The notes under the pieces are model-generated. The model was not told the DNA's origin. It did not search any database and saw only the letters and a list, made by a program, of their open reading frames with translations. Below are positions 5,931 through 64,000 of a DNA stretch of 64,000 bases, piece after piece. How positions within the stretch are numbered: the first letter of the stretch is position 1; each line of letters starts with the position of its first letter. A program made the position numbers and the translations under genes. The DNA is from Clavelina lepadiformis (taxonomy: Eukaryota > Chordata > Ascidiacea > Aplousobranchia > Clavelinidae): the NCBI RefSeq assembly GCF_947623445.1, contig NC_135248.1, forward strand, positions 2,480,001 through 2,544,000, given 5' to 3'.

Positions 5931-5938
5931 AAATTACA

Positions 5939-37439: not shown

Positions 37440-38731
37440 TTCTTGGTATAAACAATCATCATCATCTTCCATTCGCCTGTTGTTCAGGCCTGGTCTTCAT
37501 CCCGAAACAAATTCACGGTCGACCAGTTGTCTGCAGCGACGCCTCCACTTTCCCCTGTCAATGGCATCCTCGATCTTCAAACCTTTCCTTTTCATATCAT
37601 CCTTCACCGTCTCTTCCCATGTTTTCTTTGCTCTTCCCCTTTTCACCTTTCCTTCAATCATCTTATGTTGTACTCTTCTTATTAAGCTCTCCTCATTCAT
37701 TCGCTCAACGTGCCCCAACCACCTCAGACGATGTCCTCTCAGATGTTCTTCAATATCTTCCACACATGTCCACCTTCTTATCACATCATTGGTAATCCCA
37801 TCTCGTAGTGTCTTACCACACATCATTCGAATCATCCTCATTTCTGTCGTCTGCATTCGCCTGATATCAGCCTTCTTCATCGCCCAGCATTCAGCTCCAT
37901 AACACATCACACTTCTTACATATGCTTTATACAGCCTTCCTTTCAGATTGGTAGAGAGTAGTCTGCCACAGAATGTACCAGATAATTCCTTAAACTTTTC
38001 CAACTAGCGCGTAATCTTGCCGTAACTGCCCTGCCAGTACTGTCATTTTCCCCTATCATATCCCCAAATAACGAAACTCCTTAACAAGCTCGATCTCATC
38101 ACTTCCCAATTTCACATATTTCTCCTCTTTTTCATCACTAATACAACCTTTACATCTGCCACATTCGTAATTCATTCCACCCGTCAGCCTTCCATTGATA
38201 CCTGAACATCTCTTATGCACCCAATACTTGCACTTTCTGCATTGAATGGAATTTCTCCCTACTCTCTTCCCATAAATTGCACATGGATCAACAGTACTGA
38301 CTACTCCCTTCGACGATTTTCTATCAATTCTCATCGCTTTGGTTTTATTGATGTTCACCTTCAAACCTTTGCTTTCCAGTGCGCTTTTCCATCTAACAAA
38401 CTTCTCCTCCACCTCTTTCCAGCTATCTCCTACGAGAACTAAATCGTCAGCATACAAGAACTCTTCCATTGTTGTTTCCAAATCATGTGTCAGAGCATCC
38501 ATAACAATTACGAAAAGCAATGGGCTTAGCACTGAACCCTGGTGGATCCCCACTTCTACCTTAAACCATTCTGACATTTCGCCTTCGATTTTCACAGATG
38601 TCTCAGCTTCCTTATACATCTCCATCACCGCTCTAACTTCTGCTAACTGACAAACTTCTTGCTCTAACTCTAACTAACTTGCTCTAACTTCTTGGTATTG
38701 GTACTTGCTCTAACTTCTTGGTATAAACAAT
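37440..38731 (-). mobile_element. 5'-truncated LINE (RTE-like) with 17-bp target duplication
   Basis: Flanked by a perfect duplication, TTCTTGGTATAAACAAT, at 37440-37456 and 38715-38731. On the minus strand, 38628-38056 encodes the reverse transcriptase core: GIHQGSVLSPLLF, then YADDLVLVGD with the catalytic YADD, then a Cys-rich C-x2-C/H insert (QCRKCKYWVHKRCSG). 38003-37497 encodes the region after it (SVMCYGAECWAM; HRLRWLGHVERMNEE; RGRAKKTWEE). One frameshift near 38003-38060 separates the two frames, so the copy is dead but young. The 3' tail is a short GAT repeat, as in RTE-type LINEs. The 5' end is cut inside the reverse transcriptase at about 38650 and followed by filler made of repeated CTTGCTCTAAC pieces. 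Confidence 0.92.
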
Positions 38732-42870: not shown

Positions 42871-45800
42871 TTAACTTGGACTCTCCTTACCATCCCATCC
42901 TTGTCTGGATACGCCTCCTCGACGCGCGCTTTTGGCCAATTTCCACGTTTGTGGCTCAACAATGTTCTTTTTGCGAAAGTGCTTCCACATGGCGTAACGC
43001 CGTAGCTTGTAATTTGCAGCACAATCATAAACAACTCGGAATTTCCCTCCAGTACAACAGTGATGAGGGATGTACCATGTTCTCTTTGCATGGCAAAACT
43101 GTCCTTCTGGAACTTTCTTGGCATAGCCAGATTGCAGCAGTTCATTGATCTTCTTTTTGTACTGATCAAACAAACTTGAGTCCTTCTCAAGCTTGCGTTT
43201 CAAATATGACAACCGCTTCACAGCCAGAAAACGATTGTATGGCAAGGTGACATTGTCGGTTTTCCATAGAAGTCCCAACTGGTATCGTCCATCTTTTTCC
43301 TGAACTGATGACTTCAGTTTATGCATGGCGCGAATATCGTCAACGGAGTAAGAAAGATCTTCTGAGTCTTCATCCTCCACAAAGTCATGATCAAACATCC
43401 TTTGCATTTGGTCATGCAAGATGCGATTGTCGCAACGAACGTGGTTGACATGGCAAACGGCTCTGTGTTCGGTTGCAGGTTCTGGTCCAACCAGTGTCCA
43501 TCCCAACCCAGTTCTGACTGCTGTTGGCTGATTGGCACCTCCTTCCCTGACCGCATGAATGACATGTGCTTTCCTTGCACCGGCCCCAATGAGCAACTCC
43601 ACTCCACCAGCAGGTATGGCAGGAAATTGCAGGCCTTCAAGATAAGGATATCGTGTCACGTCCTTGTTGGTAGGTATGCTTCCCTTTAGTTTGGGCAAGC
43701 ATGAAAGTGTCATGACTTCTTCTAAATCAATGACGGCCGTTTCACTCAGACCCTGAATGCTAAGTGAAACCATCTTACTTTGTTGTGACCCCTCACCGTT
43801 TATGCATGAGATATGCAACTGAACCTTGGGTCCTTGTAACCCAAGTTGCTTGGAAAGACGATCGCCGCAGAATGAAGTGTCTGATCCTTCATCCAGGAAT
43901 GCATAGCACTCAACAGGCTTACGCATGTTGTGGCCCCATGCTCTGACAGGGACCACTTTCAGTCTCACGTTGTTTGCACCATGATGGTTGGTGTCGATCC
44001 CAAAGGATTCCACAGGCTTAACTGGTTCAGTAGAATCCTTTTCTTCTTTAGGCTTCTCCCATTCAGATGTTGACTGCATATACACATGCAGCAATGAGTG
44101 GTGCGACTTATTGCATGTCTTGCACTTCTTCGTCATTTTACAATCAGTGCTACGATGCCCTGCTCCAAGACAGTTGAAGCAGAGTCCACTATTTCTAACA
44201 AGACGGCGTCTGTCTTGAATAGATTTCTTCTGGAACTGGTCACACCTCCAAATGGGATGTTCTCCCTGGCAAACAATGCAATTCTTGTTCGACCTTCTGG
44301 TGGAGATTTCTAGGTTATCCACCCTCCTCTCGCTTCTTTCAACAGCTGCTTGAGAGGTATACGACCTAGATGTCTTCAGATTCCGTGTCTTGGGCACACG
44401 GTTGGTTTTTTCTTCTTCCTTGGCTCTGGCCATGGTTCGTCCATATATGTTGTTACAGGCGTGCATCTTCTCTTCAATGAATCCAAGCAGATGAGCAAAG
44501 GTCGGTCTTTTGCCCATCTTTATTTGTCTGTTTGTTTCATGGGTAATGCTTTCCTGCATTTTATATGGCAGCCGCTTGAAGATCTGCTTCAATGTGGAGT
44601 AGCTATCAAGCTCAGCCGCATAATCCCATGCTTCAAGCACTCTCCTGCAATTGGACATGTCATTATACAGTTTGCGGAGATCTTTCTCATCTCCCTTCAG
44701 CTGTGGTCCTTGAAACAATGACTGGAGGTGCGCCGCAACAACATCTTCGCGCCTACCAAACAAATCCTCCAATACTGTAAAGGCCTGACGCAAACCTTCT
44801 TCAGGCGGGTCAACCCAAATGCATCCCTTAATGCTTTCATGTGCTTCTCCGATGCACATGTCAATAAGATACCGTAGCTGTTGAGCAGCATCAGCAATAT
44901 GGCTTTGAATTGTCTCCTTGAAACCTTTTATGAACATGAAATAATGCAAGGGGTTGCCCTCGAACTTCTCCAACTCCCTCCTTGGCAAGGTCGATCTTCG
45001 CATCATCGATCGATTTTCTTCGATCATGCCAACCAACATCATCATGTCACGTTGATGGTCCGATGGTGCAGACTGAGATATGGGCCCCTCCTGGAACACG
45101 TCAAGTGGTCTGGAACGAGCATGCAGTTTATTTTGGCCTGCGGCTATCTTTGTTGGTGCCACAGGTATATCCTTCCTCCAGGAATGCATATCATAGGTGT
45201 TTCCCTTATCTAGTTCGTTGTATCCTGTGGGAGTAAAGGCGTTGGCAGTCGGTCTTAAAAGTGACATCCTGCCTGCTTCATCTGCTCTTGTGGCTTCTTC
45301 TGCATGGGGGACTTCATGTATCGTCAGTTCATTTGAAGTAACTTGAAATGGGTTTCCGTACGACGTGCTAGGCTTCGCCAGTCTTGCTGGAACATCTGCA
45401 AACTTCTCTGCTCCAGTATTGGATCTGGCACTTCCCACACTCGAGGCATTTAGCAGGTCGTCGTCATATTCAGCTTCCAGGGCTGCCCTTTTTACACTTG
45501 CCTCAGCCCGAGACATTGCAATTTTCAAGCTGATTTGGTTCTTCTGGATCCTTTGTTTTGCCTCAAGTCTTTTAGCTTCGGCCTTTGCTTCGGCCTCGAG
45601 TCTTTTGGCTTCGGCCTCGGCCTCGAGTCTTTTGGCTTCGGCCTTTGCTTCAGCCTCAAGTCTTTCTTCTTCGGCCTTGGCTTCAACCATATCCTGCTCA
45701 AATGTCAGCTGCGCCTCCAATCTTGCTTCTTCTGCCTCAATTTGAGCCTGTAGCAGTCTCTTCCTTCTAGCGCTTGAGCAAGCGCTAGACCTGGAAGACC

Positions 45801-45906
45801 TAGCCGACACCGAAGAACGCCGAGTTGAAGCGTCCATGTTGCACTGCCGAGTGTATACCGTATACTCCTCATCAGCTTCCCGCTGCCTTTGGCTTGGTAC
45901 CCGCAA
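42871..45906 (-). CDS. Gag-protease coding part of the BEL/Pao element
   Basis: An open frame of 1011 codons inside the LTR element. By position on the minus strand: a charged repeat RLEAEAKAEAK coiled coil at about 45540-45760, DUF1759-like gag at about 44450-45000, CCHC-type knuckles at about 44090-44290, and an aspartic protease with D-E-G-S-D-T at about 43880-43900. Short pol parts follow. BEL elements commonly express gag and pol as one polyprotein. Confidence 0.85.
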   Translation of the reverse strand: MRVPSQRQREADEEYTVYTRQCNMDASTRRSSVSARSSRSSACSSARRKRLLQAQIEAEEARLEAQLTFEQDMVEAKAEEERLEAEAKAEAKRLEAEAEAKRLEAEAKAEAKRLEAKQRIQKNQISLKIAMSRAEASVKRAALEAEYDDDLLNASSVGSARSNTGAEKFADVPARLAKPSTSYGNPFQVTSNELTIHEVPHAEEATRADEAGRMSLLRPTANAFTPTGYNELDKGNTYDMHSWRKDIPVAPTKIAAGQNKLHARSRPLDVFQEGPISQSAPSDHQRDMMMLVGMIEENRSMMRRSTLPRRELEKFEGNPLHYFMFIKGFKETIQSHIADAAQQLRYLIDMCIGEAHESIKGCIWVDPPEEGLRQAFTVLEDLFGRREDVVAAHLQSLFQGPQLKGDEKDLRKLYNDMSNCRRVLEAWDYAAELDSYSTLKQIFKRLPYKMQESITHETNRQIKMGKRPTFAHLLGFIEEKMHACNNIYGRTMARAKEEEKTNRVPKTRNLKTSRSYTSQAAVERSERRVDNLEISTRRSNKNCIVCQGEHPIWRCDQFQKKSIQDRRRLVRNSGLCFNCLGAGHRSTDCKMTKKCKTCNKSHHSLLHVYMQSTSEWEKPKEEKDSTEPVKPVESFGIDTNHHGANNVRLKVVPVRAWGHNMRKPVECYAFLDEGSDTSFCGDRLSKQLGLQGPKVQLHISCINGEGSQQSKMVSLSIQGLSETAVIDLEEVMTLSCLPKLKGSIPTNKDVTRYPYLEGLQFPAIPAGGVELLIGAGARKAHVIHAVREGGANQPTAVRTGLGWTLVGPEPATEHRAVCHVNHVRCDNRILHDQMQRMFDHDFVEDEDSEDLSYSVDDIRAMHKLKSSVQEKDGRYQLGLLWKTDNVTLPYNRFLAVKRLSYLKRKLEKDSSLFDQYKKKINELLQSGYAKKVPEGQFCHAKRTWYIPHHCCTGGKFRVVYDCAANYKLRRYAMWKHFRKKNIVEPQTWKLAKSARRGGVSRQGWDGKESPS

Positions 45907-45987
45907 GGGTTCTTTTACAACTGATCTTCTACACCTAAAGTTCTTGGTAGAAGTGACTTAAACCCGCAAGGGCTCTTGTAGAAATTA

Positions 45988-48134: not shown

Positions 48135-51100
48135 TTACTCCACTGTCACCAGTGAATGTTGCAAGAGGGGCGTGTCAATTTCACCGACGACTGTCCACTC
48201 AGTCTCCGGGTGGTAACATTCGATTTGCATAACGCGATTGTTGTCGTTGTCTCGCCTACACATAAGTTCATTTGGCACCGACTTGTGAATCCAAGCAAAT
48301 TACAGTCACAAATCACAATACTGTGCCAACGTTAAGCAAAAAGTACGTGTACAACTCACCCTCCCACCACGTATATCTTTCCCTGCATGACACAAGCCGA
48401 GTGTTCCCATCGCTTGTATTGCATTGCATTCACTCTTGACCATTGATTTGCCACAACATCGTATTTTTCCACACTATTTTGAGCAATTTCGTACGATTGA
48501 CCACCTGTTAATGAAAGTGGCTGTGATGAAGGCAGCACACAGCGTACTGTGTAATCTTGTGTTGTGCAGCAAAACAAAAGACACTGCTTTGAATTAAGAC
48601 TTTAAGCAACAATACAACAAAATCAGCGAGTATGATAACCAGCTAGGGATCAGCAGGTTGTTAAAATTATGCTGAATAAAACGCATGACCTACTAGTGTT
48701 GCCGCAAATGAACTAATTCGTTGGTAAAACAAAAAGTTTTAAACTTTTGTGGTTTCGAACCATATCAAGTCCTAAACTTGAAATGGACCCTGACCCTGCA
48801 TAATTCAAAGTTTAAGGTAAACTTGCAAGCAAACGTTTATGTTAATCACATAAGCTTCAGATCAGCATCAACTGAAAGTTTAAAGACCTCTTTAACTGCT
48901 ACTGTAATAACTAATAACAGATATGAAATTGTCAATGCTTTAGTTCAAAATATCTGACCAAACCACTCAGATTCAAACTGAAAATAATGAATAATGCTAT
49001 ATCAACATATGGAAATACATCGACAGAATTGCATCGGAATAAACAGTGGAAAATATTTGGGTTCCATGTTTTTGTAAAAGTAAATCAGTATCACCCGGGA
49101 TTTAATTTTCATCAATCAGAGTTCTTATTCGTAACTAGCTTAAGCAACTGTAGCTAATGATGAAAGTCATATGCTAAACATACTGAAATGTTCATCAATT
49201 GAACAATCAAAGCTAAGCATAAAGCAACAAAGAGATTGACATTTTTAGCAAAAGTCATATCATAACTAGCTTTTTATACCAACGGCATAAATGACATCAT
49301 TGATGGTCACTGCAGCAAAACTTTCCCTTCCAATGGTCATGGGAGCTCCTTCCGTCCATACATTAGCATGTGGTTCGTATCTCTCAACAGAAGTCAAACA
49401 ACAATTTCTACCATACCCACCAACTGCATATAAGGAGCCTAAATAATATATTAAAACATTAAAAGTTGTTGAATAAAGTTAACACTCTTGCTAGCAGCTA
49501 TGAATGAAAAAATACTTCACCCTACAACCTTTGCACGCCACAAGGCTATGTCCAAATCGTGCCACTTTCATTGCAGTCATTGTCGACCATTTATTAACAC
49601 CCGGCACATAATATTCACTTGATCTGCCGCACATACGTCCACCCACAACAAATATGATATCTATGAGAGAACACAAAAACACTGCCTCAGAACTATAACC
49701 ACTAATTTCTGATCAAATGTATCACATAGCAGAAGTCAAAAAAACTGTTCTACCGGATAGAACAGCTGCAGCTGCCAAGTATCTCTTTTTCTTCATCGGT
49801 GCAACCTCCTCCCATTTCAAAGGCTCTTCGCTTAAATTCAAGCGATGAACTCGATTGGTTATTGATTGAATTGGATTGTTTAGACTGGTAGATCCACCGA
49901 ACACGTAAATATAATTTTGCATCTTTACACAACAGTGGCCCACACACGTTCGATCCAAAGCCTTGACATGTGAAATCATAAGCTGATATTTTTACCAAGG
50001 GTTAACAGAAAGCATCATAACAAGTTACCAATTAATAACAAAATCTCATACAGTAAAAATATTAGAACTTTAAGTTATAACACAAAGGTCTATTAGATAC
50101 AAACCAACCTTTTCTTGTACACATATTGTATCTATAACTTTTTGAAATATCTCGAAACTAATGCCAATTAATCTTACTCCAGTTCACAAATACCAACTTC
50201 AATTACTCATGCATTACATGATTAGAATTGTGGTTTAAAACACAATACTCCGCATCTAGTTTTATAGCCAAATTATCACGTAACAGGGACCATGTCAGTG
50301 CCACACAAACACCTGCCAACTAAAAGCCAAAGTAACTCATGCAAACACATCATGCCGTTAACATACCGCTCTTAACTAGAAAGCACCAGGCCAAAACGAT
50401 GCAGACAACTGTACATACTGGATGCTATGGTTAAAGCCATTATCACACGACATGGTGCTACATTTAGAAATCTCAATCTTCATGTTGAAGAGAATCCATG
50501 GAAACATGGCATAATTGGAGGCTAACCTATCATTGCCATCCAGGCATGTTTTTATTATAAATAGATACTAATTTCATCAAATCAAGATAACTTGAAATAA
50601 TCTATTCAGTTTCTTAACCCAGTTACAAGATGTATGTTGCCTTAAACCAGGGGTGTCAAACTCAGTCGCACGAAGGGCCAAAACGCAAAACTTATTTAAC
50701 GCCGCGGGCCGTAAGGATAAAAATTGATTGAACGTTTCCTGACACCAATACATGAATTGGAACAGGCAGCGAAACAAAACTAAAATTTTTGATTTTTTTG
50801 ACGATTTTTGACTGGGCTGTTTTTGATTATTCTTATCTTAGATCATTATGTTTCATTCATCTCCTTGCAAAAGCATTAAAGAATTAACAGACAATAAAGA
50901 AAAAAGCGGCGAAACAAATTCACCGGTGACAATTGGTCGTGGTCAACTGACCGGCAACAAATTGGCCGGCGACACAAATCAAACGCTACGCATTTTATTT
51001 TTATTTTTACGCAAATTAGCATTGTTGTTTATTCAAATTATATGATTTAAGTGATAATATGATTTAAGGTTAGTTGGTTCTAGGTAAATTTACGTTACGG

Positions 51101-54072
51101 TCAGTTGTCCCTCGGTCAGTTGTCCTCGGTGAGTTTGTTCGCGGTCAATTTCCCATGGTTAATTGTCGTGGAACCGAAAAAAGCAGCCCAGACTACAAGC
51201 GTTGGAATAAATCGATTTATAATCTTGTTTCTTGCTTGCAAAAAGTAAGTTGTATTGTACAATGATCTCGCGGGCCGGAAATAGGTCAATGTATAAAATA
51301 ACATTGCGGGCCAAGTTTTATTGTGAAGCGGGCCGGATGTGGCCCGCGGGCCGGGAGTTTGACACGTATGCCTTAAACTATGGACAGTGTCAGAGTCTGG
51401 GTGATGAACCAGCCAGCAAACCCTGTACTAGAAGAGTCTAGAACACTTAAGATAGAAGCATGCAAAATAGCGTGCTAATAGTATATTTAATACAAACCGG
51501 AAATGATCTATCTATAGATTTGTCCAATGCAGGAAAAACTTTCTTCACACTTGTAGGAGTTCCACCAATGCTTAGTACAACCTCTGAAAAAGCGAAAAGT
51601 TATCTGATCTGAAAAATAACTTACAGGCACTATGTTTGTATATTATTGCTCTATATTCAAGTCAAAATAGTAATGACGTAAAAAGACCACAGGAAAAGTT
51701 AATAATATAGTTGATCAGCCTTCATTAAATTTTCAGTGGTGGTTGTCATCCTTTTTTGCTGCGATCAGAAATATTACTCAAGTTTTGATTTACATGAAAG
51801 TAAGTTAGTTATCTAACTTTTTACTGTGTGTAAAAGCCTAATATCGTATTATAGCTACAACGCAATAATCGTAGTAGTAATCATGCACCTTTAAGTCGAA
51901 TTTTCTTGGATTGAGAAAGCATCTTTCCAAGCAAAGTTCTCAAGCACTTGTTATTTTCTTGAACGAAGGGCTACGATAAAAATAACCATTCAGTGCAAAG
52001 ATTTGAAATATTAATGCTGCACCTTGTGAATGAGTTTCTTTGCGTCTGGGAATATAGAAAAAGCTATAAAAAAGTTTCTACCTGAGATGCAAGAACATTT
52101 TCCAAATAATCTCTCGGAAGAAGTTCAAGATCGATTTCATCAAGCAAATCACCGAATGCATCAGGCTGGTTGGCCAGGTTATGCTCACACCATTTTACGT
52201 ATGATTTACATTTCGAGGTTTCACAAATCTATTGTAAAAATACATGAGGTGAAAAAACATAATCACAAACATATGTACTTTATGCAATATTGCTTAACTT
52301 TATCTAATGCAAACTAGTGTCCATTTTCACAAATGGACAACATATTAAAAGTGAAATCACTTGATTCATTTACACTCACAGTGCTTCACAACTGCTTTGT
52401 TTTAACCCAAAAACTGCTGTCTTTTGCTTGTCATTATTGCTATGTTCGTGAAATCTCATATGGCTAACACAAATTTTTGTTCCCATAACTTATTGCAGAA
52501 AATAAAACGAATGAGTTTACTCTCAAACACATCAAACGCAGAAGTATACCAACACATTGTTGGTTTTCGGAAAACTGTAGTTAGAAAACAATGTTTTCTT
52601 CTACAGTAAATATGCCGTAATGACAACTTGTTTAACAAATGTTGAGACGAGATGTAGCGCTAAGACGTGTTCTGCCTAAAATTTGGGTCCCAGTTCAGCT
52701 TGAAAAGCACTGATTGTTGTGTACAATGGCACACTTGCATTGTATCAAGTAGATTGAGGATGTATTTATATCCATTCTGCAGCATTGTCTGATAAAAAAC
52801 AATTTCTATATCCAACCTCAGATTCTCTCTTCCTCTTTCCACAATTGCGTCCCCCACTCGTACAGTTTTGGGAGGTTTCCTTGAAGAGAACATGAAGCTC
52901 ATCTTTGGAGAGGTTTTTGAAATCATTCAATTCGATGATGCTTTCAATATTTCTTGCAATAAAAAGCTTTATTTGTTCTTGGGAATGGTCGCTTCCGTAG
53001 AGACGAAAAAGGTACGAGATGGCGAGGCAGGTGTCAACAGATAATGAATTTTCCAGGAACTCCAAGCAAAAAGTTTTAATTTCTGCAAAACAACATTTAG
53101 ATATATTTTTTTAATAACCGTGGAAAAACAAGTGGAATGCAAATGAGAATATGACTATCCACAGTTATGCAGTAACATGTAGTCAGTGGTGGTCAGTAAC
53201 GAAAGGTAGTCTTTAAATTTCTTCTACTTTGGCTAGTTTTAAACAGCATACTTCTGATGCTCATAGTGGTTACTTTGACCACCATTATTGCAGCGCTCTC
53301 AACTGGTGAGCTGTGAAGCCAGTTCAGGAGTCATGAAGCATGCCAAAAAATACAGGGCAAGCGCTGTGAAGTGATGTTATTCAGAACGTAGGGACTATTG
53401 TGCACACATTTGTAATAAAGATAAAGGCAAAGATAGGAAGTTCCTGGGCAAACCTTACCTTAAAATATGTTAAGAATTAGGCCTACCATCAATTTGCATC
53501 AGATTGGATGCAGAGAGCAAATCATAAACATTCTCTTTGACTATCTCAATGCTTCCCATGTACAAAAAGTCTAAAATCAACTTCATAGCATTTGGCGTAA
53601 CTCCATGAATGTGTACAATGTCTTCATGCTTTTCCCTCATCTGTAAATTCAAAGATGCCAATGCTTTAAATATCACTAGCAAAGTTGAAAAAATTGCCAA
53701 CTTGTGTTTTATTGTCTGTAATGTTGCATGAATGTAAGCTATATGAATTTTTCCTCCAGCGGCATTATTAGTATCTCGAGCATGTCAAGATGATTTTATT
53801 TAACATGCACACAAATTTCTTCACAGAGTTAATCTTACCTCCGTCTCAAACATAGCTTCGAAATACTTGCACAAACAGGACAAAACCATTCTGTGCGCCG
53901 GAAATGAAACGTCGTCAACTTTAATTGTGACGTCATTAAACTTCCCATTGAACCTGCCACTATCAAAGAACACCCATTTATCATTATCAAAAAATACCCA
54001 ACTTTGTACATAACGCCTGTGGCACATGACACAAATACTTAACCTAGATACCAACATCACTACATGCAACAT
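48135..54072 (-). CDS. BTB-BACK-kelch (KLHL-type) protein
   Basis: At least 11 exons on the minus strand, joined in phase by GT-AG sites: 53839-~53970 and 53487-53640 (BTB: FNDVTIKVDDVSFPAHRMVL, then FLYMGSIEI); 52892-53082, 52082-52228 and 51889-51970 (BACK: LSKDELH, YVKWCEH, LELLPRDYLENV); 51498-51583, 49754-49982, 49529-49660, 49280-49438, 48360-48504 and 48135-48255 (kelch). Six blades show the GG pair: LSIGG, YVFGG, FVVGG, YAVGG, YAVGG and YVVGG. The stop is at 48135-48137 after HSLVTVE. Such proteins are usually substrate adaptors of cullin-3 ubiquitin ligases: BTB binds the cullin and the propeller binds the target. The start is unsure; the BTB frame is open up to an ATG at 54072, but an earlier exon may exist. 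The join between the first two BACK exons is doubtful, with about 12 residues fewer than family members. A hAT MITE lies in one intron. Confidence 0.9.
50648..51370. mobile_element. hAT-type MITE (723 bp) in a kelch intron
   Basis: Ends are CAGGGGTGTCAAACTC and, inverted at the right end, CATACGTGTCAAACTC. The 8-bp duplication CCTTAAAC lies at 50640-50647 and 51371-51378. The interior has GGGCCGGATGTGGCCCGCGG, typical of hAT ends, and stretches with repeated GGTCAGTTGTCC-like phrases. No transposase. It sits between the exons at 49754-49982 and 51498-51583. Confidence 0.92.
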
Positions 54073-54074
54073 AG

Positions 54075-57000
54075 TTATAAAACTAACAGACTAGAAATGT
54101 ACCAGAAGATTTATAATGTTAGTACACAAATATATTTTGTGAGTATAAATCAGCTCACTCTGCTAATTCCACATAACAGTAAACTTTTTGATTTAAAATC
54201 TCATTTTCCAATACACAAATGTTTATGCTATGACATTTATTCTTGTGATCATTTAATTGTCTTTACGATCAATCAGTCATACTGATGTTCTACTTTCTGC
54301 AAAAAGAGTACATGACCCATATCTGCAAGTAAGATTCAGCATGATGAGGATAACGCAACAGGTCAATATTTTTGCACAATAATTGGATTAGTGTTAAATT
54401 TTGCACATTAATAGTTGAAAACTGAAACTCCAAACTCAGTTCTTCCCTACCTGTTAGCATATTCCAGCACATTTGTTGCATTACTTGAACGTTCACACAC
54501 AATTTTTTCGGTGGTGATTTGTTGATTCAGTCTTTTGATCATTTCAATATGCATTGTTGAAGGTTAAAATTCAAGATAGCACAACAACAAACTTATTTTT
54601 AAGTCTACTACAGATCAAAAACTTTGTCCAAAAGTGGTAAAACCAGCTAAAAATTTTCTAAAACCTACCAAAAAATCAGAACGTTATGGTTTTATAAGTA
54701 ACATAGGCTAAAGGGCAACAAAAAAACATTACGCTACACGTATGTTGAGCTGTTTCTGGTCCATGACTAAGGCTAACTTGATTTTATTGGCAACAAACAA
54801 GTGACGAAGCACAAGCATTACCTGAAGTGGAGAGGTGAGCGTTTGTGTGCCTCCTTGTCTAAAAGACGACTGGCTCAAAATAATTGCAAGTTAGAAATAA
54901 CTTATATACTGTCGTCTGTCAGTCACAACGTCTTTAAGTTATTTTAATCATTTTGTTAAAAAAGCTACAACTAGTACAGAAAAACGTTTCAAAGCGAAGG
55001 GCATCAGTACAATTGTGTAAGCTGTGCAAACGAGATTGAAGGAAAACATGACCACTTTGCAAACGTGAAAGACATTTAATCACTGTTTACGGGTATGATT
55101 TGTAATCATGTTTTCCATAATATTAAAACATTGGAAATCAGTTATGAATTGAAGATAGTTAAGAAACATTGCTTTTCACATTTTAGTTGTAATTATGGGC
55201 CTGTGAGAGAGAAAGTTTGCATAACTTTTTCGTTTCTTGGTTTTTAAAGCTGTTGCTCCAGAAATGTTAAAAATAGTTACTGAAAACCAGAGTTTAAAGG
55301 TTAATAAGTCAAAAATAAAATTATTACGCTAAAAACAACAGTACAACTTAAATTTGAATTTGAATTAAGGGCCACCGATTTGTTACTTTATATTTTACGG
55401 ATAAATTTCTAGACATCACTGTAACTCATACAAATATAGAAGCTGACCTAGAATAGATGAGAACAGAAATATTGACTTACATTGGGCTTGTTATCACTGC
55501 TGATCACTTGAAGCAGAACCACTTGTGACAGGGTGATTTGTGGGACAAAAATATGGACCTCCAATATTCAGAGCTACAATGCCGCATTATCGGTTCATCG
55601 CCTTGACACGATTCCACCTATATACTACACACCAAGTACCTTTCCGAGGTCATTGTCCTTACCTCCAATGCATTCAAAGTAAGCCAGACAAATATGGAAA
55701 ATATCACAACTTTTAGTTCTTGGACAAAACACGCTAAATTTCGGTAACATTACATCTCATCTTCATTGCTTTGTATCCCTGGTAAAATGTGTTTATATCA
55801 CGAAGTTATTACCGCACTGCAGTAGTTGTTCAATGCAAATTTTTTCATTTAACCACAATTGTTTGATATTGACATAGATGTAGGCCTATCTTTCTGTAAT
55901 TAATTATAGGCAAGTTTGGTCTAAGATTATGTTCTTAAAACGAATGAAGCTGAAATAATAATGAACTGAAATACGATTGACTGGGCTTGGCTTAGTATCG
56001 GGCCTCTTAGGTTGGTAATCGCTGTTTGTGTCATAGAACAGCGTAAGCGTTAACAAGGCAAGGTACCTTCTTACCTACATGTGGCGATATCGCAACATAA
56101 GTTTCATGGTTTGCACATAATAATGCAAGAATGAAACAAAGTAATGTCAAAAAGTTCTGAGTTCTGTAGCCTACATCATGATGAAGGAAAAAATCCACAA
56201 ATCGGCAATTTTTGCCATTTCTGAACAAAAAATTTGAAATTATCTCAAAAACTAGAGCCAATAGGAAAAAACAACCTTATTTTCGGATTCAGCACCCCAA
56301 AATCAATGAAACATCTCCGGCACAAAACATTGTGTTGACCAGTGTGGTTATTGAGAAGTTGGGGGGACATGTACCTCCTTGAAATGAGGTCCCTGATTAG
56401 CAAGCACAACAACATATCCGAAAAGACACAATGAAATCTTTTGGAAAATTGATGTGTCTTGCCAGTATCTGGAGAACAGGGTAGTGAATGCTACATTTAC
56501 TCACAAGACACATAGGACAAATACGTGATAGCTGCTGCAGCAAATGATATTGCGCTGAAGATATTTCCAAGCAAACAAGTTACTAACACAAATTGCTGCC
56601 TAAATAGGGCTAATATTACTTAAAATCGTCAAGTTTTTACGCTGATGATAAATCTTTCTTTCTTTAATACCTGTAACATGTAAGATCAAAATTGAAATCA
56701 GCACACTTATATTGTGCAATGACAGGTGTAGTATTAATACAACAAAATTGCGTTCTCCAGTGATGAGTAGGCTGCACAGTTTGAAAGCCATTCTCGAACA
56801 TAATTGTTTGAAAATAGTTTCTTATGATCGGCTGCTAGGATGCCATAGCCTACCTTTATGCAAAAAGAACATGAAAACTTATCGCCTTTTAAAAGGATAG
56901 GGTATTCCCCCAACTGGATGTCGTGGAAGCAGGTGAAACTTTCATTTCCAAACATCTCACAGCAAAGTTTCAGAATTAATACAGACGTGAGGAAATGAAG

Positions 57001-57125: not shown

Positions 57126-57133
57126 ACACAATC

Positions 57134-57253
57134 GCCTACGACCATACCACGTTGAGTACACCGCATCTCGTCCGATCTAGGAAGTTAAGCAACGTCGGGC
57201 CCGGTTGGTACTTGGATGGGTGACCGCCTGGGAATACTGGGTATTGTAGGCTT
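57134..57253 (+). rRNA. 5S ribosomal RNA
   Basis: About 120 bases with the full animal 5S layout: terminal stem GCCTACGAC.../...GTAGGC, ACCATACCACGTTGA, CGTCCGATCT, and the internal Pol III control region AAGTTAAGCAACG to TGGATGGGTGACCGCCTGGG. A TTTT terminator follows directly. Only one copy is seen, so this is either a dispersed 5S gene or the edge of a cluster. No obvious damage. Confidence 0.95.
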
Positions 57254-57424
57254 TTCGTTATTTTTTAATTTTCCAACGTTTTTTTCTGCATTTTTATTTT
57301 CCAGATGAGCTTTTCAAAATTCAAACTATTTGTTAATTTCTAATCAATATCATTTTTGAACATGTTTTATTTTAGATATGTTTATTTTGTAAATACAGTA
57401 TTATCAGCGCACAGTATCGTAGCC

Positions 57425-57497
57425 GCCTCTATAGCTCAGGGATTAGAGCAACGGTCTTGTAAACCAGGGGTCGTGAGTTCAATTCTCACTGGAGGCT
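57425..57497 (+). tRNA. tRNA-Thr-like gene (anticodon TGT)
   Basis: Seventy-three bases closely following animal tRNA-Thr(UGU). The acceptor stem GCCTCTA/TGGAGGC pairs fully with one G-T wobble, the D arm is GCTC/GAGC, the loop CTTGTAA has anticodon TGT, and the T stem GTGAG/CTCAC is perfect with loop TTCAATT. The A and B boxes are good. Two oddities: the top two pairs of the anticodon stem (A-G and C-A) do not match, and no T-run follows; satellite begins 14 bp downstream. It could be a working gene, or a copy kept only as a Pol III promoter. Confidence 0.85.
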
Positions 57498-57511
57498 ATT
57501 CTACTTACACC

Positions 57512-57740
57512 GGGTACTAGGGTACTAGGGTACTAGGGTACTAGGGTACTAGGGTACTAGGGTACTAGGGTACTAGGGTACTAGGGTACTAGGGTACTAG
57601 GGTACTAGGGTACTAGGGTACTAGGGTACTAGGGTACTAGGGTACTAGGGTACTAGGGTACTAGGGTACTAGGGTACTAGGGTACTAGGGTACTAGGGTA
57701 CTAGGGTACTAGGGTACTAGGGTACTAGGGTACTAGGGTT
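57512..57740 (+). repeat. GGGTACTA satellite, short array
   Basis: About 28 uninterrupted 8-bp units starting 14 bp after the tRNA-Thr. The array breaks down into GGGTTGGGTAGGGTC at its right end, just before the second tRNA fragment. Confidence 0.95.
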
Positions 57741-57751
57741 GGGTAGGGTCT

Positions 57752-57811
57752 AGGGATTAGAGCAACGGTCTTGTAAACCAGGGGTCGTGAGTTCAATTCT
57801 CACTGGAGGCT
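57752..57811 (+). pseudogene. tRNA-Thr 3' fragment inside the satellite
   Basis: Sixty bases identical to the tRNA-Thr at 57425 from the D loop to the 3' end, with the 5' acceptor strand and A-box start missing. The same short linker follows, ATTCTACTTACACC, before the satellite resumes. It keeps a B box but lacks most of the A box, so it is probably not transcribed on its own. Confidence 0.9.
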
Positions 57812-57825
57812 ATTCTACTTACACC

Positions 57826-60800
57826 GGGTACTAGGGTACTAGGGTACTAGGGTACTAGGGTACTAGGGTACTAGGGTACTAGGGTACTAGGGTACTAGGG
57901 TACTAGGGTACTAGGGTACTAGGGTACTAGGGTACTAGGGTACTAGGGTACTAGGGTACTAGGGTACTAGGGTACTAGGGTACTAGGGTACTAGGGTACT
58001 AGGGTACTAGGGTACTAGGGTACTAGGGTACTAGGGTACTAGGGTACTAGGGTACTAGGGTACTAGGGTACTAGGGTACTAGGGTACTAGGGTACTAGGG
58101 TACTAGGGTACTAGGGTACTAGGGTACTAGGGTACTAGGGTACTAGGGTACTAGGGTACTAGGGTACTAGGGTACTAGGGTACTAGGGTACTAGGGTACT
58201 AGGGTACTAGGGTACTAGGGTACTAGGGTACTAGGGTACTAGGGTACTAGGGTACTAGGGTACTAGGGTACTAGGGTACTAGGGTACTAGGGTACTAGGG
58301 TACTAGGGTACTAGGGTACTAGGGTACTAGGGTACTAGGGTACTAGGGTACTAGGGTACTAGGGTACTAGGGTACTAGGGTACTAGGGTACTAGGGTACT
58401 AGGGTACTAGGGTACTAGGGTACTAGGGTACTAGGGTACTAGGGTACTAGGGTACTAGGGTACTAGGGTACTAGGGTACTAGGGTACTAGGGTACTAGGG
58501 TACTAGGGTACTAGGGTACTAGGGTACTAGGGTACTAGGGTACTAGGGTACTAGGGTACTAGGGTACTAGGGTACTAGGGTACTAGGGTACTAGGGTACT
58601 AGGGTACTAGGGTACTAGGGTACTAGGGTACTAGGGTACTAGGGTACTAGGGTACTAGGGTACTAGGGTACTAGGGTACTAGGGTACTAGGGTACTAGGG
58701 TACTAGGGTACTAGGGTACTAGGGTACTAGGGTACTAGGGTACTAGGGTACTAGGGTACTAGGGTACTAGGGTACTAGGGTACTAGGGTACTAGGGTACT
58801 AGGGTACTAGGGTACTAGGGTACTAGGGTACTAGGGTACTAGGGTACTAGGGTACTAGGGTACTAGGGTACTAGGGTACTAGGGTACTAGGGTACTAGGG
58901 TACTAGGGTACTAGGGTACTAGGGTACTAGGGTACTAGGGTACTAGGGTACTAGGGTACTAGGGTACTAGGGTACTAGGGTACTAGGGTACTAGGGTACT
59001 AGGGTACTAGGGTACTAGGGTACTAGGGTACTAGGGTACTAGGGTACTAGGGTACTAGGGTACTAGGGTACTAGGGTACTAGGGTACTAGGGTACTAGGG
59101 TACTAGGGTACTAGGGTACTAGGGTACTAGGGTACTAGGGTACTAGGGTACTAGGGTACTAGGGTACTAGGGTACTAGGGTACTAGGGTACTAGGGTACT
59201 AGGGTACTAGGGTACTAGGGTACTAGGGTACTAGGGTACTAGGGTACTAGGGTACTAGGGTACTAGGGTACTAGGGTACTAGGGTACTAGGGTACTAGGG
59301 TACTAGGGTACTAGGGTACTAGGGTACTAGGGTACTAGGGTACTAGGGTACTAGGGTACTAGGGTACTAGGGTACTAGGGTACTAGGGTACTAGGGTACT
59401 AGGGTACTAGGGTACTAGGGTACTAGGGTACTAGGGTACTAGGGTACTAGGGTACTAGGGTACTAGGGTACTAGGGTACTAGGGTACTAGGGTACTAGGG
59501 TACTAGGGTACTAGGGTACTAGGGTACTAGGGTACTAGGGTACTAGGGTACTAGGGTACTAGGGTACTAGGGTACTAGGGTACTAGGGTACTAGGGTACT
59601 AGGGTACTAGGGTACTAGGGTACTAGGGTACTAGGGTACTAGGGTACTAGGGTACTAGGGTACTAGGGTACTAGGGTACTAGGGTACTAGGGTACTAGGG
59701 TACTAGGGTACTAGGGTACTAGGGTACTAGGGTACTAGGGTACTAGGGTACTAGGGTACTAGGGTACTAGGGTACTAGGGTACTAGGGTACTAGGGTACT
59801 AGGGTACTAGGGTACTAGGGTACTAGGGTACTAGGGTACTAGGGTACTAGGGTACTAGGGTACTAGGGTACTAGGGTACTAGGGTACTAGGGTACTAGGG
59901 TACTAGGGTACTAGGGTACTAGGGTACTAGGGTACTAGGGTACTAGGGTACTAGGGTACTAGGGTACTAGGGTACTAGGGTACTAGGGTACTAGGGTACT
60001 AGGGTACTAGGGTACTAGGGTACTAGGGTACTAGGGTACTAGGGTACTAGGGTACTAGGGTACTAGGGTACTAGGGTACTAGGGTACTAGGGTACTAGGG
60101 TACTAGGGTACTAGGGTACTAGGGTACTAGGGTACTAGGGTACTAGGGTACTAGGGTACTAGGGTACTAGGGTACTAGGGTACTAGGGTACTAGGGTACT
60201 AGGGTACTAGGGTACTAGGGTACTAGGGTACTAGGGTACTAGGGTACTAGGGTACTAGGGTACTAGGGTACTAGGGTACTAGGGTACTAGGGTACTAGGG
60301 TACTAGGGTACTAGGGTACTAGGGTACTAGGGTACTAGGGTACTAGGGTACTAGGGTACTAGGGTACTAGGGTACTAGGGTACTAGGGTACTAGGGTACT
60401 AGGGTACTAGGGTACTAGGGTACTAGGGTACTAGGGTACTAGGGTACTAGGGTACTAGGGTACTAGGGTACTAGGGTACTAGGGTACTAGGGTACTAGGG
60501 TACTAGGGTACTAGGGTACTAGGGTACTAGGGTACTAGGGTACTAGGGTACTAGGGTACTAGGGTACTAGGGTACTAGGGTACTAGGGTACTAGGGTACT
60601 AGGGTACTAGGGTACTAGGGTACTAGGGTACTAGGGTACTAGGGTACTAGGGTACTAGGGTACTAGGGTACTAGGGTACTAGGGTACTAGGGTACTAGGG
60701 TACTAGGGTACTAGGGTACTAGGGTACTAGGGTACTAGGGTACTAGGGTACTAGGGTACTAGGGTACTAGGGTACTAGGGTACTAGGGTACTAGGGTACT

Positions 60801-62552
60801 AGGGTACTAGGGTACTAGGGTACTAGGGTACTAGGGTACTAGGGTACTAGGGTACTAGGGTACTAGGGTACTAGGGTACTAGGGTACTAGGGTACTAGGG
60901 TACTAGGGTACTAGGGTACTAGGGTACTAGGGTACTAGGGTACTAGGGTACTAGGGTACTAGGGTACTAGGGTACTAGGGTACTAGGGTACTAGGGTACT
61001 AGGGTACTAGGGTACTAGGGTACTAGGGTACTAGGGTACTAGGGTACTAGGGTACTAGGGTACTAGGGTACTAGGGTACTAGGGTACTAGGGTACTAGGG
61101 TACTAGGGTACTAGGGTACTAGGGTACTAGGGTACTAGGGTACTAGGGTACTAGGGTACTAGGGTACTAGGGTACTAGGGTACTAGGGTACTAGGGTACT
61201 AGGGTACTAGGGTACTAGGGTACTAGGGTACTAGGGTACTAGGGTACTAGGGTACTAGGGTACTAGGGTACTAGGGTACTAGGGTACTAGGGTACTAGGG
61301 TACTAGGGTACTAGGGTACTAGGGTACTAGGGTACTAGGGTACTAGGGTACTAGGGTACTAGGGTACTAGGGTACTAGGGTACTAGGGTACTAGGGTACT
61401 AGGGTACTAGGGTACTAGGGTACTAGGGTACTAGGGTACTAGGGTACTAGGGTACTAGGGTACTAGGGTACTAGGGTACTAGGGTACTAGGGTACTAGGG
61501 TACTAGGGTACTAGGGTACTAGGGTACTAGGGTACTAGGGTACTAGGGTACTAGGGTACTAGGGTACTAGGGTACTAGGGTACTAGGGTACTAGGGTACT
61601 AGGGTACTAGGGTACTAGGGTACTAGGGTACTAGGGTACTAGGGTACTAGGGTACTAGGGTACTAGGGTACTAGGGTACTAGGGTACTAGGGTACTAGGG
61701 TACTAGGGTACTAGGGTACTAGGGTACTAGGGTACTAGGGTACTAGGGTACTAGGGTACTAGGGTACTAGGGTACTAGGGTACTAGGGTACTAGGGTACT
61801 AGGGTACTAGGGTACTAGGGTACTAGGGTACTAGGGTACTAGGGTACTAGGGTACTAGGGTACTAGGGTACTAGGGTACTAGGGTACTAGGGTACTAGGG
61901 TACTAGGGTACTAGGGTACTAGGGTACTAGGGTACTAGGGTACTAGGGTACTAGGGTACTAGGGTACTAGGGTACTAGGGTACTAGGGTACTAGGGTACT
62001 AGGGTACTAGGGTACTAGGGTACTAGGGTACTAGGGTACTAGGGTACTAGGGTACTAGGGTACTAGGGTACTAGGGTACTAGGGTACTAGGGTACTAGGG
62101 TACTAGGGTACTAGGGTACTAGGGTACTAGGGTACTAGGGTACTAGGGTACTAGGGTACTAGGGTACTAGGGTACTAGGGTACTAGGGTACTAGGGTACT
62201 AGGGTACTAGGGTACTAGGGTACTAGGGTACTAGGGTACTAGGGTACTAGGGTACTAGGGTACTAGGGTACTAGGGTACTAGGGTACTAGGGTACTAGGG
62301 TACTAGGGTACTAGGGTACTAGGGTACTAGGGTACTAGGGTACTAGGGTACTAGGGTACTAGGGTACTAGGGTACTAGGGTACTAGGGTACTAGGGTACT
62401 AGGGTACTAGGGTACTAGGGTACTAGGGTACTAGGGTACTAGGGTACTAGGGTACTAGGGTACTAGGGTACTAGGGTACTAGGGTACTAGGGTACTAGGG
62501 TACTAGGGTACTAGGGTACTAGGGTACTAGGGTACTAGGGTACTAGGGTACT
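57826..62552 (+). repeat. GGGTACTA satellite, long array
   Basis: About 4.73 kb, close to 591 units of GGGTACTA, with no variant unit that I can find. The unit holds two 4-bp palindromes (GTAC and CTAG) and a GGG every eight bases, so one strand fits a G3-N5 quadruplex pattern throughout. It ends abruptly at GGGTACT|TTGCAGG. True length in the genome may differ, because assemblers collapse or trim such arrays. Confidence 0.98.
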
Positions 62553-62559
62553 TTGCAGG

Positions 62560-64000
62560 CTATGTTAACCATACATATAGGAAGTACCAGCCTATTATTG
62601 CGAATTTGTCCATTGATTTCGTGTTGCAGCACTGTAGCCTACTATTCTTGAATCCGCATTGCGTCACATAAAACAAATCCGTAAACTTCATGTGGAAAAT
62701 ATCGAGGTTATGTGAAAATGAATGAATGAAAATATCAAAAATGCAGACCATTTACAGTATCCAATGCCATATTTTTCTCTTTAGTAAGCACGCTAATTTT
62801 TCCGGAACGTTCTTCAATAAAATCCATATCTAAAGTATATGTTTGAAAATGGCTTGTAGCCTACTTGGCATGTCAGCAGGAGAAACTACAACCAATGTTT
62901 AGGTTCTGATGGTGATTGTCTTTGTTAATGTGACATATATCATATAAGCCTGCTTTGCTGTGAAACTACCTTTGCTGCTTAGCTGAACACAATAATGGAA
63001 GAGATATGATTAAGATGAGACTCGTCATGAGAGTATTTTCCTGAACAATGACACCCTTTTATCTACAAGCTGCTTTGCTACAAATGTGTTGTGTTACCAA
63101 ACCTGTTAGAGAGTCCTTTGAACATAGATATCTGTACTTAGTTGTAGGCTCCCGGGCTGCTCCGTCAGTATTTTTCCTTTTGCATGCATTGACGTATTTT
63201 CCTTGCCTTTCTTGGTTGGTACAGCCAAAAGCCGCACAACTTATTGACATTGTAATAAGTCGATGCACAAGCCTAAATATAGTCTTTTGATTACAATTTC
63301 ATCAATGCAAAGACTACCTGAAGAATGACTCACTAGTAGAAATGTATAATTTGCAATATAACTTATGCTCATAGCAGCCGTATGAAACCGTTAATCTTAT
63401 GCAAGTAAGCTTCCCACATACCAGTATAATAAAACCACAAACATTAAACCTTGCTACATTTTGTTTTAACGTTATATAAGACAAAATTATCGTTAGTTTT
63501 CCATTCATCAGATACTTATTTATACGGACAGTTGTAAATTGCACGCAAACAATTTTGCCAACCTTTCTTCATTTAAAAAATATGATAATGCAGAAACATG
63601 CTGAAATGAACCACTATTTCTCTTAGCGTAACTAAATTAGCGCTGGAGCTCTGCTAAATAATTTGTGTTTAACCTGTTGTATCAAAGATATAAATAAAAC
63701 GAAAGTTAAACAAGATCGTTTTCTAAAGAAATGCAAATTTCTCGAAACCACATTAGCGTCACATTTTTCTGACCTTCATGCCCCCATTTGTTATGAGATT
63801 TTTATTCCGAAAGCTTTTCGGCTGTGGTTTTGATCGCTCTCATTGAAAATCTCTTTTCATTCTTTGAATTTTGACAAAATTCGCATGTACAGGAGCTAAA
63901 AGTGACGTGATTGAAAAAATTGACATCAACCGCTCACAATTGCTTCGGTTCATTGCGTGACAGCGTTTTTCATCAAACCGAATTTTGTGGTGTTTCACAT
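62560..64000. other. Non-coding stretch after the satellite
   Basis: No supported gene. A minus-strand frame at 63059-63268 (MSISCAAFGCTNQERQGKY near its start) faintly recalls the first Cys pair of a THAP finger, but the Trp and C-x2-H parts are not seen. Confidence 0.35.

What the first reader, a model, noticed from the sequence alone, without database searches (positions are those of the whole stretch)
57826..62552. A 4.7-kb, apparently flawless 8-bp satellite (GGGTACTA)n
About 591 units with no visible variant. Arrays this uniform need very recent expansion or constant homogenisation. The unit is telomere-like in having G3 every eight bases, so it could form G-quadruplexes or R-loops, and its GTAC and CTAG palindromes permit strand self-pairing. 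An 8-bp unit is unusual for a kilobase-scale satellite. Fork stalling or chromatin effects on the neighbouring 5S, tRNA and kelch genes are possible but are inference.
Basis: partly seen in the sequence, partly recalled or inferred. Interest (0 to 1): 0.7.

Follow-up and report, generated by a model that had tools for sequence, protein, structure and literature searches.

The report
tRNA-linked 8-base satellite in sea squirt
A sea-squirt chromosome carries nearly five thousand bases of one eight-letter DNA word repeated without a spelling error just behind a tRNA gene copy, and close variants of that word form long arrays downstream of tRNA genes on three other chromosomes, which suggests that the ends of tRNA genes are places where such repeats take hold and grow.

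Summary
The array is real and exact: 57826-62552 is 591 units of GGGTACTA with no mismatch. The genome is Clavelina lepadiformis kaClaLepa1.1. Seven of 13 chromosome ends fetched are TTAGGG, none shows GGGTACTA. The left flank is a 3.9%-diverged relic of a 5S/tRNA cluster unit, against zero changes in the array, so the array was homogenised far more recently. It is not alone. Arrays of GAGTACTA and GGGTACCA occur on C1, C2 and C4. All four long loci found lie 3' of tRNA genes on the same strand: 14 bp (C9), 52 bp (C1), 0 bp (C2), and about 0.76 kb, unread, on C4. Two C1 copies with no substitution in 2.58 kb of flank differ 2.5-fold in array length. Best reading: a young, fast-changing satellite family growing at tRNA-gene ends by fork stalling and slippage or template switching. 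The mechanism is inferred; no function is shown. Closest known: tRNA-linked repeats of Entamoeba.

The parts
57128..57400 (+). Relic of a 5S/tRNA cluster unit: 5S rRNA copy (57134-57252) with 148 bp of its downstream spacer
   Evidence: 263 of 273 bases identical to the best C3 cluster copy read; 5S 96.3 bits here against 115.5 (12 of 13 cluster copies; one has 113.9); 5 of 119 positions differ from the 5S shared by one C3 and one C1 copy compared
57399..57511 (+). Second piece of the same kind of unit, joined after loss of about 572 bp relative to a C3 unit: tRNA-Thr(TGT) 57425-57497 with about 24 bp upstream and 14 bp downstream
   Evidence: 5 mismatches of 113 to the best copy; two of three changes in the tRNA fall at the start of the anticodon stem; 54.8 bits against 70.3 for the best cluster tRNA-Thr
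57512..57739 (+). Array 1: (GGGTACTA)28.5, perfect
57740..57751 (+). Irregular G-rich 12 bp at the duplication junction; the join lies in AGGG, shared by the array and the tRNA D-loop
   Evidence: sequence; the junction reading is inference
57752..57826 (+). Exact 75-bp duplicate of 57438-57512: 5'-truncated tRNA-Thr plus its 14-bp downstream sequence (its last base is the first of array 2)
   Evidence: 75 of 75 identical
57826..62552 (+). Array 2: (GGGTACTA)591, perfect; no TTTT or AAAA from 57498 to 62552
62553..64000 (.). Right flank, no tRNA or 5S found; pieces 80-91% similar to one place on C2

Best explanation
This is a young member of a small family of 8-bp satellites in Clavelina lepadiformis that sit 3' of tRNA genes. 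Shown: a piece of a 5S/tRNA cluster lies on chromosome 9, diverged by about 4% from the best cluster copies read; a GGGTACTA repeat starts 14 bp past its tRNA-Thr; the tRNA end is present twice, each time followed by an array; the repeats are perfect, so their last homogenisation is much younger than the relic. Shown elsewhere: arrays of the one-base-different unit GAGTACTA follow tRNA-Ser(TGA) genes on C1 and C2, and tRNA-Ser-like hits lie upstream of the C4 array, all on the same strand. One C1 array passes from GAGTACTA to GGGTACCA within itself. Inferred: the doubled tRNA end came from a tandem duplication joined in AGGG; tRNA genes are fork barriers, and replication stalled there restarts by slippage, template switching or break-induced copying on the adjacent short repeat, adding or removing many units at once and sweeping one unit variant through the array. 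Also inferred: by displacing the T-run Pol III terminator the array may let Pol III read into it, which could reinforce stalling. No benefit to the animal is shown; it is most likely a mutational by-product.
For: Perfect arrays. Relic flank 15 mismatches in 386 bp against 0 in 4,719: a 95% upper bound of 6.4e-4, about 1.6% of the relic's divergence. tRNA-to-array distances read at base level on C9, C1 and C2; 13 tRNA-Ser hits at C4:6604387-6606332 (+) upstream of array edges at about 6607090, 6608072 and 6609551; a tRNA gene there had been predicted (note). C1a and C1b flanks have 0 substitutions in 1,030 + 1,550 bp but arrays of 1,126 and 2,862 bp. Unit switch inside C1c. First TTTT is at +5274, +1325 and +3053 after the tRNAs beside the C9, C1a and C1b arrays, against 7-207 bp at 47 tRNA genes not next to an array. 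tRNA genes as fork barriers and recombination hot spots: passages of PMC5368702 and section 'Origins' of PMC2652664.
Against: C1, C2 and C4 all involve tRNA-Ser and may go back to one event, so independent cases may be only two. Related arrays were found by searching for units like this one, so the unit similarity is partly ascertained. The C4 gap of about 0.76 kb was not read, and whether its last tRNA-Ser hit (88% identity) is still a gene was not tested. Six other tRNA-Ser places have no detected GTAC array. The C9 tRNA-Thr is diverged, so its transcription is doubtful. At C1c a TTTT does lie between the last tRNA and the array (+85). No replication, transcription or population data.
Confidence: 0.55

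Rival explanations
1. Passenger model: the repeat arose once beside a tRNA-Ser gene and was carried around when tRNA/5S cluster pieces were copied to new places; tRNA transcription plays no causal part and length changes are ordinary slippage and unequal exchange.
For: tRNA-Ser at C1, C2 and C4; the sequence just right of the C1 arrays and the C9 left flank both resemble 5S/tRNA cluster units.
Against: The tRNA-array joins differ (0, 14, 52 bp) and C9 carries tRNA-Thr, with no tRNA-Ser found in the window.
Confidence: 0.27
2. Mobile-element origin: the 8-bp repeat is the tail or target product of a retroelement that inserts next to tRNA genes, and later expanded.
For: tRNA-targeting retroelements exist in yeast and Dictyostelium (section of PMC2652664); an array of about 40 bp of GAGTACTA on C6 abuts sequence that I read as a non-LTR reverse transcriptase (my reading, no family search was run on it).
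Against: No element body lies between tRNA and array at C9, C1a, C1b or C2; the tRNA copies keep genomic flanks or end without CCA, so they do not look like retrocopies.
Confidence: 0.08
3. Assembly or sequencing artefact: the array length or its perfection is produced by the assembler.
For: Very uniform; raw reads could not be examined; read correction might remove rare unit variants (general knowledge).
Against: HiFi at 117-fold, fragments of 12-20 kb on average that can span 5 kb, QV 67.4 (PMC10884593); arrays of the same family at four loci with different lengths and units.
Confidence: 0.04
4. Maintained functional satellite, for example a chromatin boundary or source of a repeat RNA.
For: Recurrent position and orientation 3' of tRNA genes.
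Against: Only four long loci found; large length difference between otherwise near-identical copies; diverged flanking genes at C9.
Confidence: 0.04

Closest known systems
tRNA-linked short tandem repeats of Entamoeba tRNA/5S gene arrays (PMC2652664; abstract, passages and section 'Origins' seen)
   Same: Short units (generally 7-12 bp, several of exactly 8) beside tRNA genes, tRNA arrays some of which encode 5S, one-base unit variants, copy-number variation, proposed fork pausing and slippage
   Different: In E. histolytica the repeats lie in the intergenic regions of all arrayed tRNA genes, and the blocks in the passages seen have few copies (such as 3-7 or 3-19); here four long loci in an animal, about 28 to over 1,000 units, perfect over kilobases
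Simple-sequence satellites of animals, such as 5-12 bp satellites of Drosophila (recalled, not searched)
   Same: Short unit, kilobase arrays, related unit variants
   Different: As recalled, those are mostly very large heterochromatic blocks; these are short dispersed loci tied to tRNA genes
Interstitial telomeric repeats (recalled)
   Same: G3-containing short repeat inside a chromosome
   Different: Telomere repeats here are TTAGGG (7 of 13 ends fetched); unit differs

Membership tests
Entamoeba-type tRNA-linked STR | Tandem repeat of 7-12 bp beside tRNA genes | tested here: met
   Read on C9, C1 and C2; C4 by coordinates only
Entamoeba-type tRNA-linked STR | Repeats present in the intergenic regions of tRNA array units generally | tested here: not met
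   In the four 9.9-kb stretches of C1 and C3 5S/tRNA clusters read, the only short-unit arrays TRF found are of 4 bp; six other tRNA-Ser places lack a detected GTAC array
Satellite DNA | Kilobase tandem array, homogenised | tested here: met
Satellite DNA | Heterochromatic or centromeric location | not testable with these tools
   No chromatin data; array at 2.54 of 15.73 Mb of C9
Telomeric repeat | Unit equals the species' telomere unit | tested here: not met
   7 of 13 ends fetched are TTAGGG/CCCTAA, 5 read N, 1 has no telomere repeat; 0 GGGTACTA in the 8 readable
tRNA-derived SINE with tandem tail | Many dispersed copies of tRNA head, body and tail without genomic tRNA flanks | tested here: not met
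   tRNA-Thr keeps about 24 bp upstream and 14 bp downstream of cluster sequence; no body; no other locus with this exact unit in three copies

The most novel reading that the evidence does not exclude
tRNA-gene 3' ends are cradles of satellite birth in this animal: a short repeat that displaces the Pol III terminator turns a tRNA gene into a kilobase read-through unit whose purine-rich RNA forms R-loops, stalls forks and makes the repeat grow further, a self-reinforcing expansion that sweeps new unit variants through arrays. This fits the position and strand at all four long loci found and the missing terminators at C9, C1a, C1b and, over the 26 bp read, C2.
Probability: 0.15. Interest if true: 0.75.

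Novelty: new variant of a known kind. Interest (0 to 1): 0.5.

Why it matters
How satellites are born, and why at some places and not others, is an old question. Here are several young arrays of related units in one genome, lying downstream of tRNA genes, with natural duplicates that share flanks but differ in length. That makes the link between Pol III genes, fork stalling and repeat growth directly testable with existing long reads and RNA. It also warns that tRNA genes beside such arrays may lack terminators.

Tried and rejected
Telomere origin: rejected, unit is not the telomere repeat seen. Strand self-pairing: DNA and RNA folds no better than shuffles. Array as a dispersed repeat of this exact unit: rejected, 614 of 614 exact 24-mers are here. 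Retrocopied tRNA or SINE: rejected on flanks. Empty site at the C2 place similar to the right flank: blastn of the window against about 28 kb of C2 gave six matches, none within 54-62.7 kb, so no empty site was found. Variant units at positions 5 and 6: 9 scattered matches against 29 in the reversed-pattern control, nothing. In one search, of 600 forward matches I at first took all for the GGGTACCA family; a check shows that (CATGGTTA)n matches that pattern, its control, and the reverse control with 3 mismatches, so about 530 of them and most of the high controls (565, 736) are probably the unrelated C4 array.

Literature. The literal string GGGTACTA: 249 papers hold it, the 20 listed are unrelated, primers and the like as far as titles show (listing only). 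tRNA-linked or 8-bp satellites and tunicate satellites: searches (0 papers; 6; 1; 22, 8 listed; 1) gave, in the listings, nothing on point except Entamoeba. That is a statement about this open-access library and these words alone.

Not done. A genome-wide search for a tRNA B box followed within 38 bp by a GTAC array was sent eight times and never answered, so enrichment at tRNA ends was not measured. The mitochondrial COI search did not complete; the species was settled by scaffold lengths instead.
Full report
Identity of the genome. The window is G000:C9:2480001-2544000 of a 209-Mb, 95-contig assembly. C4 is 25,070,715 bp and C8 19,509,797 bp, exactly the scaffold N50 and N90 of Clavelina lepadiformis kaClaLepa1.1 in PMC10884593, and C1, C2, C3 and C9 agree with its chromosome table to within about 0.01 Mb (I read parts 1 and 2 of 3 of the text). 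The assembly is PacBio HiFi at 117-fold with DNA sheared to 12-20 kb on average and QV 67.4, so single reads can span this locus; I could not see reads.

The observation. 57826-62552 is 4,727 bp of perfect GGGTACTA. A second perfect array of 228 bp lies at 57512-57739, and the 86 bp between them hold 12 bp of irregular G-rich sequence and then a 75-bp exact copy of 57438-57512, which is the tRNA-Thr gene from its D-loop to 14 bp beyond its end. The join lies in AGGG, which is present in the array and in the tRNA D-loop. The simplest account is a tandem duplication of tRNA end plus array, joined at that short homology (inference). The two arrays differ 20-fold in length although the duplicated 75 bp are identical.

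The left flank. 57128-57400 and 57399-57511 match two pieces of the 5S/tRNA gene clusters on C3 and C1. In a C3 unit the two pieces are about 572 bp apart; here they are joined. Against the best copies read there are 10 mismatches in 273 bp and 5 in 113 bp, 3.9% together, the two pieces overlapping by 2 bases. The 5S differs at 5 of 119 positions from the 5S shared by the one C3 and one C1 copy compared, and the tRNA has 3 changes from one C3 copy, two of them in the anticodon stem. Infernal scores are 96.3 against 115.5 for 12 of 13 cluster 5S copies, and 54.8 against up to 70.3 for the tRNA. Homology to the cluster stops where the array begins. The array shows 0 changes in 4,719 comparable positions, so at 95% its divergence is below 6.4e-4, about 1.6% of that of the relic. 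The array was therefore made or made uniform long after the relic diverged.

Not alone. The exact unit in three copies occurs only here. Allowing 2 mismatches in 16 bases gave 3,250 + strand and 28 - strand matches in the genome (reversed-pattern control 23 and 13), against 617 in the window. Exclusion patterns then led to (GAGTACTA)n and (GGGTACCA)n on C1; their controls were high (565 and 7; 227 and 736), mostly explained afterwards by an unrelated (CATGGTTA)n array. An edge pattern, four GTAC units followed by a broken fifth, listed all its 73 places, 59 of them in the C2 array (control 24); two variants listed 83 and 48 places (controls 11 and 24). Long arrays are at four loci. C1 has 1,126, 2,862 and 554 bp, read in full within a 17-kb stretch. 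C2:22905688-22921831 is about 16.1 kb, with no break detected from 22905694 to 22916284 and many after that (a random break escapes all three patterns in about 2% of cases). C4 runs from about 6607090 to 6609551 with at least one internal break. C9 is the given one. The other places are short or irregular: C2:1372854, C2:19421661, C6:1580523, C6:18372930, C4:4854297 and C5:2232386. Apart from C2, the number of edges is thus no larger than in the control; the CATG counterpart, listed (24 places), has one long array (C4:3117291-3121777), several short ones and 14 places of a repeated element on C9.

Position. On C1 each array follows a tRNA-Ser(TGA) cluster: 52 bp past the last tRNA for the first two, and past a further stretch with a tRNA-like 5' fragment for the third. 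On C2 the array begins directly after the tRNA-Ser 3' end. On C4 I predicted a tRNA gene at the left end (note). A tRNA-Ser query then gave 13 hits at C4:6604387-6606332 on the + strand, the last with 88% identity, and the leftmost array edge found is about 6607090, so about 0.76 kb remain unread. The same note predicted tRNA genes at two C6 arrays; they turned out to be about 40 and 64 bp long, the predicted ends were not read, and the opposite flanks (L071, L072) hold no tRNA. On C9 the distance is 14 bp. Thus at 4 of 4 long loci tRNA genes or tRNA-like hits lie upstream on the strand that carries GRGTACYA, three of them read at base level. The right-hand flanks read on C2 and C4 (L073, L070) hold no tRNA. 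Six other tRNA-Ser places lack a detected GTAC array (C2 near 2.00-2.04, 2.68 and 24.25 Mb; C3 near 22.4 and 23.7 Mb; C8 near 17.4 Mb), so the arrays are not an obligate part of tRNA-Ser clusters. One search scored 40 of 359 candidates, so the list of tRNA-Ser places is incomplete.

Instability. The first two C1 copies have 0 substitutions in 1,030 bp before and in 1,550 bp after the array (16 gap columns), yet arrays of 1,126 and 2,862 bp. The third C1 array begins with about 2.5 units of GAGTACTA and continues as (GGGTACCA)69: a two-base unit variant has been amplified on the spot. Length and unit identity thus change much faster than single bases mutate.

Terminators. I measured the distance from each of 52 predicted tRNA genes to the next TTTT. 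At 47 genes not next to an array it is 7-207 bp; many are copies of the same cluster units, so not independent. Next to the arrays it is 5,274 bp (C9), 1,325 and 3,053 bp (C1), not reached in the 26 bp read (C2), and 85 bp at the third C1 array. The units contain no T-run, so if these tRNA promoters work, Pol III would run into the array. That is inference; the C9 tRNA is diverged and no RNA data were available.

Mechanism. tRNA genes are replication fork barriers and, under some conditions, recombination hot spots in yeasts (passages of PMC5368702), and for Entamoeba tRNA-linked repeats fork pausing plus strand slippage has been proposed (PMC2652664, section 'Origins'). The same explanation fits here: a short chance repeat at a tRNA end grows when stalled forks slip, switch template or restart by copying. 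The AGGG join at C9 and the length jumps at C1 fit template switching or unequal exchange. Quadruplex potential is formal only; hairpin folding is not better than in shuffles. The main rival is that one array born beside tRNA-Ser was carried around with tRNA/5S fragments. The different joins and the tRNA-Thr at C9 speak against a single event but do not exclude it. The unit similarity is partly ascertained, because I searched for similar units: 384 of 65,536 8-mers (0.6%) lie within one mismatch of GAGTACTA in any rotation or strand. The (CATGGTTA)n array shows that long 8-bp arrays here need not be of this family; its flanks were not read.

Verdict. The finding is confirmed and extended. It is a new variant of a known kind: tRNA-linked short repeats, here in a chordate, at four long loci and at satellite size. 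The most telling missing test is a strand-aware, genome-wide enrichment of short-unit arrays at tRNA 3' ends.

Noticed in passing
C3:4876994-4985501 and C1:17708421-17815845 (loci L033-L036): Large 5S/tRNA clusters with repeating 5S, tRNA-Asn, tRNA-Val and tRNA-Thr genes, units often about 2.5 kb on C3 and 3.6 kb on C1.
   Followed up: partly
L034:2168-2240 and L034:4717-4789: In two cluster units the tRNA-Thr copy carries anticodon TAT instead of TGT by one base, so ARAGORN calls it tRNA-Ile on an otherwise Thr-like body: a possible identity switch or pseudogene.
   Followed up: no
C4:3117291-3121777: A further kilobase-scale 8-bp array with an unrelated unit, (CATGGTTA)n; flanks not read.
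   Followed up: partly
C2:22916284-22920857: The distal part of the C2 GAGTACTA array is broken at spacings such as 59, 67 and 75 bp, as if a higher-order repeat were forming, while the 10.6 kb next to the tRNA gene shows no detected break.
   Followed up: partly
window 5933-12283 and L038:949-2866: A TPR-repeat open frame with about thirteen 264-bp repeats (91% matches), and a second block of a 264-bp repeat just upstream of the window.
   Followed up: no
window 38056-38673 and 42871-45957, - strand: Reverse-transcriptase fragment followed by a PHD-like finger below the curated cut-off, and a 1,028-codon open frame that looks like a BEL/Pao-type retroelement (my reading; Pfam gave only a flotillin match below its cut-off).
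   Followed up: no
window 48356-54090, - strand: BTB-kelch gene in several exons about 3 kb left of the 5S relic.
   Followed up: partly
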